The notes beneath the pieces are model-generated. The model saw only the letters and a list, made by a program, of their open reading frames with translations. It was not told where the DNA came from and made no database searches. This document shows, one piece after another, positions 4,368 through 13,408 of a stretch of 15,709 nt of DNA. Position 1 is the stretch's first letter. Each line of letters starts with the position of its first letter. This DNA is from an uncultured Mycoplasma sp. (GTDB lineage Bacteria; Bacillota_I; Bacilli_A; Mycoplasmatales; Mycoplasmoidaceae), in NCBI GenBank assembly GCA_947174035.1, contig CAMWHH010000004.1, positions 1 through 15,709 of the forward strand, read 5' to 3'. The translations under genes and the position numbers were made by a program.

Positions 4368-4409
4368 AAAGAGAGATTATTGTTTATTTTATTTTTTTGG
4401 TATTGAATT

Positions 4410-7400
4410 ATGGGTAAGTTTAAAAAAATTAATTTTCTAAGATTTTCTTTATTATCTGGTGTAACAGCTCTTTCGCTTGGTGCTGTATTTTCAAATATAA
4501 AACTAAATGAATCAATTAGTCTGGTTAGTACTAACAATCAATCAACAACTGCAACTGATTCTGTAGCAGCTAGTGGAACTGATAATGTTTTTACTACCTT
4601 TACAGCAAACAGTAACACTAATACTGCTGTTACAATATATCCATTTGATTTAAACAACAACAACAATACTTATGAAGCTAATAAAGTTAGTGAAACCCAA
4701 ATTATTCAAAACACAGCAAACGATGATTCTGGAAATACAGGTTATGCAACCTTTGTAAAACAAGGGGGCAATGATGCTATTGCTAAGTTTTTATCAACAA
4801 ATACTTATGATGCAGATGGAAATGTTTCAAAATACGCTGGAACAGTTGATTGAATAGTTACCAAAGATGATTTAATTAAATTAGCATATCAAGGTGTTAA
4901 TGGCACTAGTTTAACTAACACTGCTGGTTATGATTTAAAATTCAAAGCAATGTTATTTTCATCAGGTGGTAATACTGCTCCTAAATCTCTTTTTGTAATT
5001 GCTTCAGTTACAAAAAGTGGTGATAGTATTAATGGAAGTTATTTATTCCAAATTAATTGATCAACTATAGAAGATAATAGTGCATTATCTAATTCCATTA
5101 ATGGAGATAAAAAAGGAGGTAGTTACAGACTTGCAGCTGTACTTTCTAAAACAACAACTACAGGTAGTGAAACAAAGCAATTTATAGACTACAACTTTTT
5201 AGTAATGGAAGCAGTTTCTACTAATACAATGCAAGCTATTTATTTAGCCAATAGAGATAATAATGCTATGAGTGGAAATAAGTATGTTACTGTTTCTAAC
5301 TCTTTGTTTGGTACTACATCTACTAAAAGTGCTGTTGATATTACTTTTTCAGGTGAAACAAATTATTTTGCATCTGGAAAAAAATATATTCCAGTTTATG
5401 CTAATAGAATTAACTCTAGATTTTTCTTTATTTATCAATTAATTGATGGTTCTGTAAACAATTGTTTAGTTTTTGTCAGATCTGATGAATTAACTGATAA
5501 TGCTAACAACAGTATAACAATTAGTGGAAGCAATAATTTCAAATCATTAACTTTGGGTGATTATAGCAGTGCTAACATGCTTAAAACTAATGTTTACTAT
5601 AATCAAAATGCTTCAACATCAAGAGCTGATTTTAATTTAATTCTTAGTTCGCCAGATAGTAATAGATATGTTTGATCACAATTTGATTTTATTTCATTTA
5701 ACTTTACAAGTAGCCCTACTAGTACACTTTATAACTGATTTCCAATTGGTGGCTTTATAACTCAAGTAGTACCTTACTATTCTCTTAATAGTTATGATGT
5801 TAGTGGGTATTATGCTTTAACTTCTGCTAATAGAGTAATTTCATTAAATGCAGATTTTAGTTTTGATAAATTAGTTTATGACTTTAATAGTTCAATTTAT
5901 TCATTAGGTGATATTTATAGAATCTACACAATTCCTGGAAGTGCATCAGGTGTTTGATATGCTCAAATGACTGATGGTACTTTTGCAAAAATGAATTATA
6001 GTAGTTTAGTTGGTCAGTGAAATAAATTAGAAGAAAATTCATCTTATGAAAAAGAAGCTGATTTTACTATCAAATCACAAGATGAAGTAGATTCATCAGT
6101 TTTCTTTAGACAAGTTGTTGCTAATGGTGGAAATAGTTTTGATGGTGCATTTTTAGAATTCTTAAGTGGAAACACTGTTTGAAAAAACTTTTTAGATTTT
6201 GATGAGTCTTCAATTGATGGTCAGTTACCTGCAGGAACTGAACCTGTTGTTAGTGTTAAAGTATTTAATCAAGATACAGCTGATTATTATTTTGGTTCAA
6301 GTGCTACTCATAAACTAGAAGCTAACAAATCAAATAGTTTAACATTAGTTTTTACTCAAAACTTAAGAAAAATTAGTCCTGGTGGAAATTTGGATTATTC
6401 AGAGAGTAAAAGTGTAATTATTGGTTCTTATACTTATACTTTCTATTATGGTGAAGCAAAAATTAATAACACTGGTAAAGGTTCTACAAGTTATGCAAAC
6501 TATGAATTATATAAAAGTTTAACTGGTTTAACTATTCCAGAATATGTGCTAGAAATGTACCCTTCAAAAATTGCTTCATTAATAAATGGAACAGATTCTG
6601 ATAGTGAAAATAATGCTAATTTTATTAATTCATTCTTAAAAATGGAAAACATTGTTAGTCCAGTAGTTACTGCTTCTGGAAATGATATTACAGGTTCACT
6701 AACAATCAATGTTGCAGTACCTTATATATGAGATGTTGGTAACATTGTTACTCCAGGTGCAAACTGAGTATTTACTTTTGGTACAAATACAGAACCATTT
6801 TTCAAATATAATCCATTTGGATTTACAGATTCTGTTAATTATGTTTCAAATGCTAGTGTTACTCCAGTTGATGAAAGTTTTTCAAATTTAACTGATAACA
6901 GTGAAAAAATGGATACTTTAATTAGTAAATATTCAACTATGCTACCTTCACAAGTAAGTAAAGAAAGTTATTATAATGACTTTTTGGTTTTAGGTTCAGC
7001 ATTTGCATTGTCTAGTAATATTTCAAGTAATTTAATAGTTTTACCTACTAGCGATAGTGATGCAAATATTACTATTATTCCAGATGATGTTAATGGAAAT
7101 GCTTTTGTTTCAATTAATTTCCCAAAAATTGGACCAGATGAAAATTACACAGTTAGTTTTACTACTCCAAGTATTTTCTTAAAAGATCCATCTGCTTCAC
7201 AAAGTGTTTATTTCACTTGAAAATCTAATAAACAAGTTAATGATTCTATTACTTTAAGTAATTTTAAAGCTTCAAATATTGCTAATTCTTTACAATCTTC
7301 TTCATATGTTGACCAACTAGCAATGTTAGATAATTTTGCAGTATATTCAGATTACTATGCTAACTTAATTGCTAATGGAAAATTACAAATTAATACAAGT

Positions 7401-8648
7401 TATGATGACAAACAAGGGTTTTTAATGATAACTTTAACTCCAATTGATGGAACTGAAATTCCAGGTGTGGATACTGAAATTGTTATGTCATATAACACAT
7501 TCCAAACTGATCCAAATGGTTTATCTAATGTTGATATTAATGATACATCTAAATTTACTTCAAATTTCAGTTTCAAAACTTATTCTGCAAGTAATACAAA
7601 ATCACCTTCATCTGTTACAATCAATGATTTGGTAAGTGGTGGATTATTGGATGCAAATTTCCAAAATTGACTTGCAAATGATTTAGCAACAATAACTTTA
7701 ACTCCATCAAATTTAACTGGTACTTTAAAAGTTTCTGTTACTTTAAAAAATTATTCTGAAAATAGTTCTATTACTCCATTAAAAACATTCACTACTAACA
7801 TTGGTGGATTTGCAACAAGTGGTCAAAGTGCAAATATGATAGTTTGAAAAACTAATGATGATGAAGTTTTAAAACAAAAATTACCAAGCATAATAGTAGA
7901 AGCTGCTACAAATACTGCTACTGCTAATGCTGGTAACCAAACAGACAGAATGAATTTTGAAAAATTATTATACTTTGCAAATATTTCAGATGATCTTAAA
8001 ACAAAACTAGATGCTAATCCAGCTATGGTATCAGCTTTAACAGTTCAACCAGATGATAAAAGTGGGAACTTAATTGTGACTGTTGTTATTGTTGAGAATG
8101 GAATTTCAACTGTTTATACAAACACATTAACTGGGTTAGGAACAAGTGCATCTTTACAACCTGTTATAACATTTAATGTTGATGACGCATCTGGTAATAA
8201 TGCAATCTTAAATAGTTTAAGAGAATTAAATCCATCAAAAATTTCTATTGAAAATTCAGGTTTGTTACAATTGTTTACAATTTCTGATTCTTCACCAAAT
8301 TACATTACTTCAATTGATTTAAGTTATGATGACTTTGGAGGAACACTTACAATTAATGTTACTGTTAAAGATGCATCAGGACTTGAATTAGCTACAAACT
8401 CTAGAACTTATACAGGTTTTTCAACTGTTAAAGATACTTCTAAAGGTACAAATTGAGGAATTGTAGCAGCAGCAATAATTGTTCCGTTAGTTGTTTTATT
8501 GATTCCAGTATTATTAGTTGGACAAATTCAACAAAGAAGAAACATGAAAGCAATTGCAAAAAGATTATCTACAAGATTGAAAGAAGAACAAGAAAGAGAA
8601 AAAAGATTGAAAAAACACCAACTTTTACTTTCTCAAAAAAACAGATAA
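4410..8648 (+). CDS. Large modular surface protein, 1412 aa, single C-terminal membrane anchor
   Basis: Not recognised as a named protein. The N-terminus has a basic stretch and a hydrophobic core (about residues 10-28) without a lipobox cysteine, so it is a signal peptide or signal anchor. The outside part is very rich in Asn, Ser, Thr and Asp; the only cysteine I noticed is at residue 352. From about residue 700 to 1345 there are roughly six degenerate modules, each with a strand like GxLxVxVxV near residues 770, 900, 1005, 1107, 1221 and 1314, usually preceded by a DD or ND pair. This resembles the repeat style of the Mycoplasma lipoprotein-associated/DUF1410 domains, a low-confidence match. 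Residues 1350-1371 form the membrane segment, followed by a strongly basic, Glu/Lys/Arg-rich tail of about 40 residues, probably helical. All 13 Trp that I find are TGA. A large adhesin-like role is plausible from its topology only. Promoter at 4339-4367. Confidence 0.85.
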
Positions 8649-8761: not shown

Positions 8762-8790
8762 TTGATTTTTGCAAAATTAAAGTTTATCAT
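8762..8790 (+). promoter_or_regulatory. Promoter of the 484-aa protein gene
   Basis: TTGATT (8762-8767) and TATCAT (8785-8790) are separated by 17 bases. Predicted transcription start is near 8797, leaving a leader of about 31 bases that contains the Shine-Dalgarno sequence at 8815-8820. Confidence 0.45.
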
Positions 8791-8814
8791 TAATTTACAC
8801 AATAAAAAATGGAC

Positions 8815-8820
8815 AGGAGG
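8815..8820 (+). promoter_or_regulatory. Perfect Shine-Dalgarno AGGAGG
   Basis: AGGAGG lies seven bases before the ATG at 8828. It fixes the start there and rules out the longer in-frame reading from 8762. It is the only full-strength ribosome binding site in the window. Confidence 0.85.
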
Positions 8821-8827
8821 ATTTAAT

Positions 8828-10282
8828 ATGAACAAGAAAAAAATATTAGAATCTGTGCTAGTTGGAACTTCAGCACTTGCAATAGGTGTGGGTGTTGGTG
8901 TCCCTGCTGCAATAGTTTCAAATCAACAATCTTCTAACATTGATATAAAAGACAATAATAAGGGCACTGAAACTCCAAGTGATGAAAATACAAATATTGA
9001 AACTCCAAGTGATGAAAAAGAAACTGAAAAACTTGCTAGTGCTCCACAGCAAGCAATTTATGAAGGAGTTATTAATTGGGGTGAAGCAAAAGACAAAGAT
9101 ACTTTAAATGATTATCTATACTCAAAATTTCATGAAGGAACTTCACAATCTTATGATGTGTTTAAAGATTTACTTGAAAACAATAGTGAGTTTGCAAATG
9201 TTAATATTGAATATGTAGAAAATTCAGCAAATTATGAAAGTAGTTCTTTTGAAATTAAAGTTACTCCAATCCAAGATTATTCTTGAAATGACAAAACAAA
9301 TGAATCTAAAAATATTTTAGTAGAAATACCAAATTTAGATAAAACTGAATGAACTTCAATTGTTCCACAAAGTTTATCTTATTCAGTAACAATTGATGGA
9401 AAAGATGTGAAAAACACTAGTCAGTTAAATACATATTTATCAAATAGTTTTAGTAGTTCAAATTTAAACTTAGATACAAAATTAGATGCTAAGTTAATTG
9501 ATAATTCAGCTTCTTTTGAAAACAAAAATTTTAAAGTTGCAGTTGCTCCAAAATCTGGATTTGCTTGAACTGATGGTTCATCTAAAGCAGTAGAAGTTAC
9601 AGTTAGTGTAAAAATTAGTGAATTAAAATATGATGCTGCTTCTATTTCAAATGATAACTATAAAGTTAGTCTTAATTTAAACCAAGTTTCAAATAGTAAA
9701 GCTTTTAATGAATATTTAATGAAAAATTTTAGAGCAATGGATTTAGAAAAATTTGCTTTATACAAAAATGTTGAAATTAAATATGTAGAAAATTCAGCAA
9801 GTTATGATGCAAACCAATTCAAAGTTTCTATTACTCCAGTTGCTGGACATGCTTTTAGTGATGATAAATCAATTGAACCAAGAATTAGAGTAGTAAATGG
9901 AGGATTAAACAAGGACTTTGCTAACTTTGATACTAAAACACTTGCACAAACTAGTGGTGTATTTAAAGATGCTCCTTATTTAATTGTTACAAATAATAAT
10001 GATGCTGCTATAACTTATTCAATTTCTAATTGATCTTATGATTGAGAATTTTATAGAAACTTAGAAGGATGAAGTACATACTGATGCATTTCAACAGACT
10101 CTGGGAAAACATGAGAAAGAGCTGGGTATGGTAAATCAGTAACAGTTAATAAAGCAATGCTTCCTGATTCTGGATTATTTTTAAGATATGAAATTGAAGC
10201 CAAAGAAACTGATGTCTCAGTTTTTGGTGAATCAGATTCATTTATTGCTTATCGTACACTTCCTATTAAAGTACTTAACTAA
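8828..10282 (+). CDS. Secreted or membrane-anchored protein with three tandem modules, P35-like, 484 aa
   Basis: The N-terminus has a basic start and one hydrophobic segment (about residues 9-30, SVLVGTSALAIGVGVGVPAA) with no cysteine, so it is not a lipoprotein. A linker follows (residues about 35-70) with a duplicated ETPSDE motif. Three tandem modules of about 95 residues come next. Each ends in a strand and Pro-aromatic pattern: FEIKVTP at 141, FKVAVAP at 235, FKVSITP at 331, followed by a Trp/Phe and an Asp/Ser-rich turn. Modules 1 and 3 share YVENSA. This pattern resembles the C-terminal part of the M. penetrans P35 surface lipoproteins, as I remember them. The last 80 or so residues form a distinct Trp-rich domain (WSYDWEFYRNLEGWSTYW). 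All but one Trp are TGA; the exception is TGG at 9077. It has its own promoter and a strong ribosome binding site. Function unknown; likely a surface antigen. Confidence 0.85.
8968..9018 (+). repeat. Tandem-spaced 21-bp direct repeat in the linker of the 484-aa protein
   Basis: The same 21 bases occur at 8968-8988 and 8998-9018, exactly 30 bases apart. They encode the two ETPSDE motifs in the acidic linker after the membrane segment. The in-frame 10-codon period means copy number could change by slippage without breaking the frame. Confidence 0.8.
9210..9800 (+). repeat. 21-bp identical block shared by modules 1 and 3 of the 484-aa protein
   Basis: Identical 21-base blocks sit at 9210-9230 and 9780-9800, 570 bases (190 codons, two modules) apart. 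Each encodes YVENSA in the same module position. Module 2 has the related IDNSASF at this place but a different DNA sequence, so modules 1 and 3 look more closely related to each other. Confidence 0.75.
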
Positions 10283-11566: not shown

Positions 11567-11752
11567 TTTTCCTCACTGTTAAATCTTTTATATTTCTATA
11601 CTTTGATTTTATAAATAAGGGTTAATTTTTAAAAAAATTTAGTATTTTTTATTAACTTTTTACTAAAAATGGACAAAAAAAGTCATTTTTTTGTAAAAAA
11701 ATGAAAAATTTTTTATTTTTTTTAGAATTTTTTGTTTTTTTATGCTCTAATA
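11567..11752. other. AT-rich divergent intergenic region upstream of glyA
   Basis: No open frame of note. The first part (to about 11620) is the glyA leader and holds several TATAAA-like boxes on the minus strand, none with a clear -35. From about 11620 to 11740 the sequence is dominated by T and A runs. A TATGCT box at 11741-11746 is a candidate -10 for the RNA that follows. Confidence 0.5.
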
Positions 11753-11753
11753 A

Positions 11754-11765
11754 TATTGCGCAATA
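11754..11765. repeat. 12-bp perfect palindrome at the 5' end of the noncoding RNA
   Basis: TATTGCGCAATA is its own reverse complement. Its left half, TATTGCGC, recurs at 11788-11795. GC-rich palindromes are rare in this background. In RNA the second copy can pair with 11758-11765; in DNA the palindrome could be a binding site for a dimeric regulator. Confidence 0.6.
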
Positions 11766-12207
11766 ATGTTAAATCATTTGAACTTGATATTGCGCTTTTC
11801 GCTAATTTTTATTTTTAGTCAAAAGAATAAAAAGCCTGGTCACCTGATAGCCTGGTGGGTGACAATTCTTGAGAATGAAAAAATAAAAAACAAGGTAGCG
11901 TAACAGAATAGCAATTCGCTGATTCTGTGTCGGGCAGTTTTGGTGTCATATAATAGTCACTGAAAATAGAACCTATTCTTGGCCGGATAAAGTTCTATTG
12001 GATGGGATTTAAAAATGGTAAGGGCCACCTGATGCGTTGTGATGTTATAGTTACTGAGTTTGGTATTGGTTTGTTTAAGAGAAAAGTTTCCCTTATTCAT
12101 AATACATGCTAAAAACTTATTGGTGAAATTTCAGCGATATCTTTTATTTAAAAGATTGGTATTGTGCACCGGTTACCTCAAAAGGGTAGCAAAAGTGAGT
12201 AGATTTT

Positions 12208-12236
12208 GAAGGACTCTTAGGGATAAAGAGTCCTTC
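12208..12236 (+). terminator. Intrinsic terminator of the noncoding RNA
   Basis: A perfect 11-bp stem with good GC content (arms 12208-12218 and 12226-12236, 7-base loop), followed at once by TTTTATTTT. It is the most GC-rich terminator in the window and separates the noncoding RNA from mnmA. Confidence 0.88.
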
Positions 12237-12253
12237 TTTTATTTTCTTCATAA

Positions 12254-13408
<1,155 letters not shown>

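What the first reader, a model, noticed from the sequence alone, without database searches (positions are those of the whole stretch)
11753..12241. Candidate large structured noncoding RNA of unknown class between glyA and mnmA
Seen directly: about 490 bases with no usable reading frame, raised GC content, at least six separate complementary stem pairs in order, and a strong GC-rich terminator. The hallmarks of RNase P RNA, tmRNA, SRP RNA and group II introns are not visible. Few bacterial RNA classes of this size are known (ROOL, GOLLD, OLE, RNase P, tmRNA). If it matches none, it may be a new class; if it matches one, finding it as a stand-alone housekeeping-region gene in a reduced genome would still be notable.
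Basis: partly seen in the sequence, partly recalled or inferred. Interest (0 to 1): 0.82.

Follow-up and report, generated by a model that had tools for sequence, protein, structure and literature searches.

The report
New large structured RNA in Malacoplasma
Between two ordinary genes of a mycoplasma-like bacterium lies what looks like a real gene for a roughly 485-letter folded RNA that matches no catalogued RNA family, is kept in its genus and in some close relatives, and has no known job.

Summary
Window 11757-12241 (+) looks like a stand-alone RNA gene of about 485 nt, with a -10-like box and a terminator. No Rfam 15 family reaches its gathering score. RNase P, tmRNA and SRP RNA genes lie elsewhere in the genus. 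Full-length homologues occur in 10 of 10 genomes of the genus (Malacoplasma, inferred) and 2 of 3 of a sister genus; no other was accepted among 320 order and 395 class genomes. The fold shows covariation: on a sequence-only alignment 87.6% of cells pair against 37-47% with partners slid, and 40 pairs change on both sides against 13-21. A long arm joins the ends. A loop-loop pseudoknot (CCUGA/UCGGG or CUCGA/UCGAG) fits all 12 members. One hairpin loop keeps GGCC in 12 of 12. No reading frame is conserved. mnmA follows in 10 of 10 genus genomes but not in the sister genus, so a trans-acting RNA is likelier than a leader. No transcript has been seen and the function is unknown; my best guess is an architectural RNA that may dimerise.

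The parts
11743..11751 (+). extended -10-like promoter box (TG C TCTAAT)
   Evidence: TGnTnnAAT lies just upstream in 11 of 12 members; G020 (L163) has TATAAT without the TG. The promoter consensus is recalled knowledge.
11757..12241 (+). the RNA gene, about 485 nt (start inferred from the -10 box, end from the terminator)
11757..11765 (+). P1 5' strand, pairs 12160-12168 (closes the molecule)
   Evidence: 98.1% of cells paired; 7 of 9 pairs never vary and none changes on both sides, so it is not supported by covariation
11772..11782 (+). P2 5' strand, pairs 12147-12157
   Evidence: 90.2% paired, 4 of 11 pairs with changes on both sides
11786..11793 (+). P3 5' strand, pairs 12134-12141
   Evidence: 99% paired, 2 of 8 pairs changed on both sides; also found by the scan that assumes no structure
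11801..11805 (+). P4 5' strand, pairs 12120-12124
   Evidence: 100% paired, 2 of 5 pairs changed on both sides; also in the scan
11812..11830 (+). P4b (11812-11818 with 12109-12115) and P4c (11825-11830 with 12093-12098), end of the long arm
   Evidence: P4b 80.7% paired with 4 of 7 pairs changed on both sides, P4c 73.6% with 1 of 6; assigned by hand per member
11834..11856 (+). P5 hairpin; its loop carries the 5' half of the loop-loop pairing K (11843-11848)
   Evidence: 83.3% paired, 6 of 7 pairs changed on both sides; flank-shuffle test combined p 1e-5 over 8 lineages, 5 of 8 below 0.05, the window's own 0.29
11895..11905 (+). P6 5' strand, pairs 12043-12054 (encloses P7, P8, P9)
   Evidence: 86% paired, 6 of 10 pairs changed on both sides
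11917..11945 (+). P7 hairpin (7a 11917-11922/11940-11945, 7b 11925-11927/11935-11937); its loop carries the 3' half of K (11929-11934)
   Evidence: flank-shuffle combined p 4e-5, 4 of 8 lineages below 0.05; K complementary in 10 of 10 genus rows as aligned and in both sister-genus members when aligned by hand
11944..11948 (+). P9 5' strand, pairs 12016-12020 (overlaps the end of P7a by 2 nt)
   Evidence: found by the scan that assumes no structure, one compensatory pair; not assigned in the sister genus
11966..11998 (+). P8 hairpin with palindromic loop GGCC at 11981-11984
   Evidence: GGCC kept in 12 of 12; the hand-assigned stem differs in sequence in each of 8 lineages; local shuffle test weak, combined p 0.04, only 2 of 8 lineages at or below 0.06
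12023..12027 (+). second GGCC (GGCCA), possible internal partner of the P8 loop
   Evidence: 10 of 10 genus members, absent from both sister-genus members
12172..12190 (+). P10 hairpin after the closing arm
   Evidence: 79.4% of cells paired, 2 of 6 pairs changed on both sides
12208..12241 (+). intrinsic terminator; loop GGGAUAA kept in 10 of 10 genus members, not in the sister genus
   Evidence: 73.1% paired but 7 of 9 pairs changed on both sides on the sequence-only alignment; full stem in all 8 lineages by hand; loop tally

Best explanation
A stand-alone gene for a large, trans-acting structured RNA, a family not in Rfam, found so far only in Malacoplasma and a sister genus. Shown by sequence: a promoter-like box and a terminator of its own, a conserved fold with a long arm pairing the two ends, and a loop-loop pseudoknot between P5 and P7. 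Inferred: that it is transcribed, that it acts in trans, and that it works as an architectural RNA. The long arm clamps the ends, the P5-P7 contact folds the molecule back on itself, and the palindromic GGCC loop of P8 may join two copies loop to loop, as the loop L9.3 does in OLE RNA; the result would be a scaffold for proteins or for itself. Gene and fold about 0.93 likely; architectural, possibly dimeric role about 0.35.
For: No Rfam match at gathering score. Full-length homologues in 10/10 genus and 2/3 sister-genus genomes. Covariation above shuffled and slid controls; a scan that assumes no structure recovers P3, P4, P7b, P9 and the P5-P7 pairing. No conserved frame. -10-like boxes before both the RNA and mnmA. 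Other neighbours in the sister genus. GGCC loop in 12/12, while its only candidate internal partner is missing in the sister genus. OLE uses a symmetric kissing loop whose core is the palindrome GGCC, GAUC or AGCU (PMC12286853; abstract and sections 5 and 8 read).
Against: No transcript seen. mnmA follows in 10/10 genus genomes although the upstream gene changes, which fits a link to mnmA. In the genus the GGCC loop has a perfect internal partner, so dimerisation is not needed there. GGCC never varies, so no covariation supports dimerisation. The P5-P7 pairing rests on one compensatory pair and one one-sided change. P8 is weak in the local shuffle test (combined p 0.04; at least 0.22 in all six genus lineages). 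A looser scan gave 6 and 5 windows for true pairing but 3 and 7 for a like-with-like rule. At deeper distances the RNA is less conserved than RNase P RNA, tmRNA and mnmA DNA.
Confidence: 0.45

Rival explanations
1. A trans-acting regulatory RNA that base-pairs with messenger RNAs or holds a regulatory protein, the structure being mainly a stable frame for exposed segments such as GAGUWGAUUU or the terminator loop.
For: GAGUWGAUUU before the terminator and GGGAUAA in its loop are kept in 10 of 10 genus members.
Against: No target was tested. 485 nt with a pseudoknot is much larger than usual base-pairing sRNAs (recalled). Neither segment is kept in the sister genus.
Confidence: 0.2
2. A very long 5' leader of mnmA whose terminator is an attenuator, so that the RNA senses something and lets mnmA be read through.
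For: mnmA lies directly downstream, same strand, in 10 of 10 genus genomes while the upstream gene differs.
Against: By eye a -10-like box lies between terminator and mnmA in all 10, though such boxes come easily in AT-rich DNA. In the sister genus the next gene is a cas9-like frame (G029) or a lipoprotein-like frame (G020; my reading, no family search).
Confidence: 0.13
3. A functional stand-in for 6S RNA, which Rfam does not find in the genus: a long interrupted arm that mimics an open promoter and binds RNA polymerase.
For: 0 of 10 genus genomes match 6S RF00013 at E <= 0.001; it rings in 5 of 14 control genomes. The arm P1-P4c is long and interrupted.
Against: More than twice the size of the 187-position 6S model, with a pseudoknotted core that 6S lacks (recalled); no 6S match to the RNA itself.
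Confidence: 0.1
4. A guide or accessory RNA of a CRISPR or transposon nuclease (tracrRNA, HEARO-like).
For: In G029 it ends 84 nt before a cas9-like frame; 6 of 10 genus genomes have a Cas9 match.
Against: Four genus genomes with the RNA have no Cas9 match: G000, G001, G004, G007; G001 is a single contig, 98% complete. In G008 cas9 is about 320 kb away. In G020 the gene on the other side is an MPN551-family DNA-binding protein, with a sub-cut-off match to a putative nuclease family; no Cas9 match in G020.
Confidence: 0.04
5. Not an RNA gene: a small protein gene on the minus strand, or similarity without function.
For: A 140-codon minus-strand frame in the window, still 119 to 139 codons in five of the 12 members.
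Against: Frame cut to 38-80 codons in the other seven, no Pfam match; covariation.
Confidence: 0.02

Closest known systems
OLE RNA (577 nt in C. acetobutylicum; PMC12286853, abstract and sections 5 and 8 read)
   Same: Large structured RNA with several stems and, in OLE, a symmetric kissing loop with a GGCC-type palindrome; this RNA keeps a GGCC hairpin loop in 12 of 12.
   Different: No OLE match up to E 10. In OLE the loop palindrome covaries, here it is invariant. No OLE-associated protein gene was looked for; dimerisation untested.
ROOL and GOLLD RNAs
   Same: Large, ornate, role unknown, loop-loop contacts.
   Different: No match up to E 10. ROOL and GOLLD are recalled as phage- and plasmid-linked; this is chromosomal in the single-contig genomes, and 0 of 11 viral contigs with the 5' pattern hold it.
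RNase P RNA class B, tmRNA, small SRP RNA
   Same: Chromosomal structured RNAs of a conserved lineage.
   Different: Separate genes found in the genus: 9/10, 10/10 and 10/10 genomes (SRP over cut-off in 7 of 10; the window's own genome 38.1 against 40 bits).
6S RNA
   Same: Long interrupted arm pairing the two ends (6S architecture recalled).
   Different: Size, pseudoknotted core, no Rfam match; function untested.

Membership tests
Any Rfam 15 family (4227 models) | score at or above the family's gathering threshold | tested here: not met
   0 matches in the window. Permissive: 4 matches, best rli45 23.2 of 60 bits; 7 matches in 8 loci, all below threshold. The archaeal sR35 model hits the same place weakly in the window (12.6 bits) and G009 (22.0), threshold 60; taken as chance
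OLE / ROOL / GOLLD | match to the family covariance model | tested here: not met
   not among matches up to E 10 or up to E 2 in 8 loci
OLE-like dimeric RNA (works like) | symmetric palindromic loop-loop contact between two copies | tested here: inconclusive
   GGCC loop in 12/12, no second GGCC in the sister genus, but invariant and with an internal partner in the genus
RNase P RNA | match to RF00011 and no other RNase P RNA gene | tested here: not met
   RF00011 found elsewhere in 9 of 10 genus genomes including the window's own
tmRNA | match to RF00023; tRNA-like ends | tested here: not met
   tmRNA gene elsewhere in 10 of 10; ARAGORN finds none in the window
6S RNA | match to RF00013 | tested here: not met
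   no match in the window or in the 10 genus genomes
6S RNA | binds RNA polymerase | not testable with these tools
   needs pull-down
mnmA leader / attenuator | always transcribed into mnmA | tested here: inconclusive
   adjacent in 10/10 genus genomes, not in 2/2 sister-genus members; -10-like box before mnmA by eye
tracrRNA | co-occurrence with cas9 | tested here: not met
   RNA present without a Cas9 match in 4 of 10 genus genomes, of which G001 is a single contig

The most novel reading that the evidence does not exclude
A new class of large RNA, unrelated to any known family, that arose in the Malacoplasma line, folds through a loop-loop pseudoknot and joins two copies through a palindromic GGCC loop, making a protein-free or protein-binding RNA particle in a bacterium with a small, reduced genome.
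Probability: 0.3. Interest if true: 0.88.

Novelty: categorically new. Interest (0 to 1): 0.76.

Why it matters
Few bacterial RNA classes of this size are known and several have no known job (recalled). That makes it testable by deletion, probing and pull-down, and the GGCC loop gives a direct test of whether RNA self-assembly recurs outside OLE, ROOL and GOLLD. 'Categorically new' refers to the RNA family; the broader kind, large structured RNA of unknown function, is known.

Tried and rejected
Rejected: RNase P, tmRNA, SRP RNA (separate genes); 6S and all other Rfam families; tracrRNA, suggested by the cas9-like neighbour in G029; minus-strand protein.

Dropped matches; 14 of 59 genomes matched; 3 (G030, G038, G052; stretches of 26-36 bases, E about 9e-4) did not match the profile at E <= 1; 7 of 72 pattern matches are the RNA, the other 65 are not supported (best E 0.0057). 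That scan did not return G001 or G008, which do carry the pattern, so it is not complete; 0 of 11 viral contigs; 48 of 95 genomes had a match at E <= 1 and 12 were accepted; G021 (0.0016) and 17 weaker places held as loci have no 3' half by profile (nine of them also read); the weaker places not held as loci were not checked. (model R2 on 30 genomes): 28 had a match at E <= 0.5, 2 were accepted; six of the weaker (from 0.001) were checked by profile, the rest not; 2 of 395, own and G422 (9.8e-4), the latter dropped because only the 5' part matched.

Limits. R1 was trained on 11 of the 12 members, so only G020 (E 2.8e-6) was an independent find. Searches over more than 40 genomes scored 40, 12 and 9 candidates per genome, so distant relatives may be missed. 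G011 of the sister genus gave no accepted match. The first alignment had five loci on the wrong strand and was discarded. In the looser scan true pairing gave 6 and 5 windows; parallel orientation 1 and 2; control rules c1 and c2 none, c3 2 and 1, like-with-like 3 and 7 (antiparallel) and 2 and 3 (parallel): it does not discriminate against the last. In one search the hairpin scores beat the 95th percentile of random positions in 5 of 8 lineages for P5, 4 of 8 for P7 and 2 of 8 for P8; that test looks only near the loop and so would miss the outer P8 stem. Helix strings were assigned by hand. A third RNA model was not built. A viral search with MnmA found nothing. Paper searches for this RNA: (1, 0, 7, 0, 26 and 0 papers; 10 of the 26 listed); only listings and starts of abstracts were seen and none named such an RNA there. 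One search served to find the ornate-RNA paper.

Full report
Where it is. The window's genes read through TGA as tryptophan. Its closest relatives include a single-contig genome of 1,358,633 bases (G001), which I recognise by size, from memory, as Malacoplasma penetrans; G008 (1,278,574 bases) I guess to be M. iowae, unverified. Contigs of the same length as those of G003 and G009 are labelled Malacoplasma sp., others uncultured Mycoplasma sp., and that of G029 uncultured Mycoplasmataceae. I therefore call the genus Malacoplasma; this is inference. NCBIfam names the flanking genes serine hydroxymethyltransferase (glyA) and MnmA.

The gene. A -10-like box lies at 11743-11751 and an intrinsic terminator at 12208-12241. 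TGnTnnAAT stands upstream in 11 of 12 members; the twelfth, G020, has TATAAT. The terminator stem forms in all 8 lineages. A start near 11757 and an end near 12241 give about 485 nt. GC is 34.5%, above most of the neighbouring sequence. The strand folds better than all 100 shuffles (z -4.07). The window's own genome, held at 79.7% completeness, shows one copy.

Not a known RNA. Rfam 15 gives no match at gathering thresholds in the whole window. With permissive settings four weak matches appear, none to RNase P, tmRNA, SRP, 6S, OLE, ROOL or GOLLD. Eight loci (the window's and seven homologues') give seven weak matches, all below threshold; only the archaeal sR35 model recurs at the same place, in the window and G009, at 12.6 and 22.0 bits against 60. 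RNase P RNA is found elsewhere in 9 of 10 genus genomes, tmRNA in 10 of 10, SRP RNA in 10 of 10 (7 over cut-off, the window's own genome just under), and 6S in 0 of 10.

Who has it. BLASTN finds it in all 10 genus genomes and in G029 of a sister genus. A covariance model of the 5' 109 positions adds G020 of the same sister genus, which was not in its training set (E 2.8e-6); the profile aligns it over nearly its full length (by then it was in the profile) and its sequence carries the P5-P7 loops, the GGCC loop and the terminator. So 10 of 10 and 2 of 3. No further member was accepted among 95 family, 320 order and 395 class genomes; these sets overlap and the larger searches score few candidates per genome. 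A pattern scan of the GTDB species collection gave 72 stretches, of which 7 are this RNA, all from Malacoplasma or unnamed Mycoplasma relatives; it did not return G001 or G008, so it is incomplete.

The fold. On a sequence-only alignment of all 12 (A5) I named 101 pairs. 87.6% of cells form standard pairs (shuffled mean 79.7%, 0 of 500 as high; slid by 1-3 columns 36.6-47.1%). 40 pairs change on both sides (shuffled mean 23.7; slid 13-21) and the covariation score is 0.302 (shuffled 0.176; slid 0.066-0.104). The structure was derived from these sequences, which favours it against the slid versions, and related sequences can exceed the shuffles without structure. A scan that assumes no structure, over the 10 genus rows, asked for 5-base windows that pair in every row with at least one compensatory pair: 5 windows under the true rule and orientation, 2 in total over seven control scans. 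The five are P3, P4, the P5-P7 pairing twice, and P9; a 4-base scan asking for two compensatory pairs gave only P7b, and none in the controls. A looser scan did not discriminate against a like-with-like rule.

The P5-P7 pseudoknot. The P5 loop reads CCUGA and the P7 loop UCGGG in the window and L002-L006; in L007-L010 and both sister-genus members they read CUCGA and UCGAG. All 12 pair fully once the two sister-genus rows are aligned by hand; on the automatic alignment those two rows each have one broken pair. The change is one compensatory pair (C-G to U-A) and one one-sided change (U-G to C-G), so a single event. The hairpins around these loops are better than shuffled flanks (combined p 1e-5 and 4e-5 over eight lineages, which are not independent; 5 of 8 and 4 of 8 below 0.05).

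The GGCC loop. The P8 hairpin loop keeps GGCC in 12 of 12 although the hand-assigned stem differs in sequence in each of 8 lineages. In the genus a second GGCC could pair with it inside the molecule (10 of 10); the sister genus lacks that second copy. In OLE RNA the loop L9.3 makes the symmetric dimer contact and switches between the palindromes GGCC, GAUC and AGCU (PMC12286853; abstract and sections 5 and 8 read). Dimerisation here is therefore open, not shown; the P8 stem is weak in the local shuffle test (combined p 0.04).

Neighbours. mnmA is the next gene on the same strand in 10 of 10 genus genomes. Upstream lies glyA in G000, G005 and G009 and something else in G001, G004, G006, G007 and G008; G002 and G003 were not examined. 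By eye a -10-like box stands between the terminator and mnmA in all 10, weak evidence in AT-rich DNA. In the sister genus the next gene is a cas9-like frame (G029, NCBIfam 99.5 bits against a cut-off of 100, no Pfam match) or a lipoprotein-like frame (G020). Cas9 has no match in G001 and three other genus genomes that have the RNA, and a match in the other six. Together this favours an independent, trans-acting RNA over a leader or a guide RNA.

Rate. Between the window's genome and G001 the RNA is 78% identical, RNase P RNA 83%, tmRNA 87%, mnmA DNA 74%. Against G009 the RNA (71%) exceeds the others (65-68%), whose two RNAs carry insertions there. Against G008, G006 and G004 the RNA (62-63%) is less conserved than the other two RNAs (71-78%) and mnmA DNA (66-71%). 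It thus looks like a structured RNA under looser sequence constraint than the housekeeping ones.

Verdict. A very probable new family of large structured RNA with an unknown role. What is shown is conservation, fold and gene boundaries by sequence; what is inferred is transcription, trans action and the architectural or dimeric mechanism.

Noticed in passing
L137 7905-9269 (G029): A cas9-like frame begins 84 nt after the RNA in the sister-genus genome G029; the contig ends inside it.
   Followed up: partly
G010 C1 598570-601608: Cas9 matches lie in four overlapping pieces, three of them with in-frame TAA or TAG stops, which looks like a decayed cas9.
   Followed up: no
window 12259-12267: mnmA seems to have an extended -10 box (TGGTATATT) seven bases before its ATG, which would make a leaderless mRNA.
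   Followed up: partly
L133 6272-8378 (G001): Four tandem frames of 115-135 codons beside the RNA; the two read are near copies of each other. The first has no Pfam match and only a sub-cut-off NCBIfam match.
   Followed up: no
L004 (G002), between terminator and mnmA: A second hairpin followed by a T run lies after the terminator; not seen in the other stretches printed.
   Followed up: no
window 12217-12227: The terminator loop GGGAUAA is kept in 10 of 10 genus members although the stems differ; unexplained.
   Followed up: partly
window 4380-8648 and 8762-10282: Large surface-protein-like frames by my reading of the translations; not examined.
   Followed up: no
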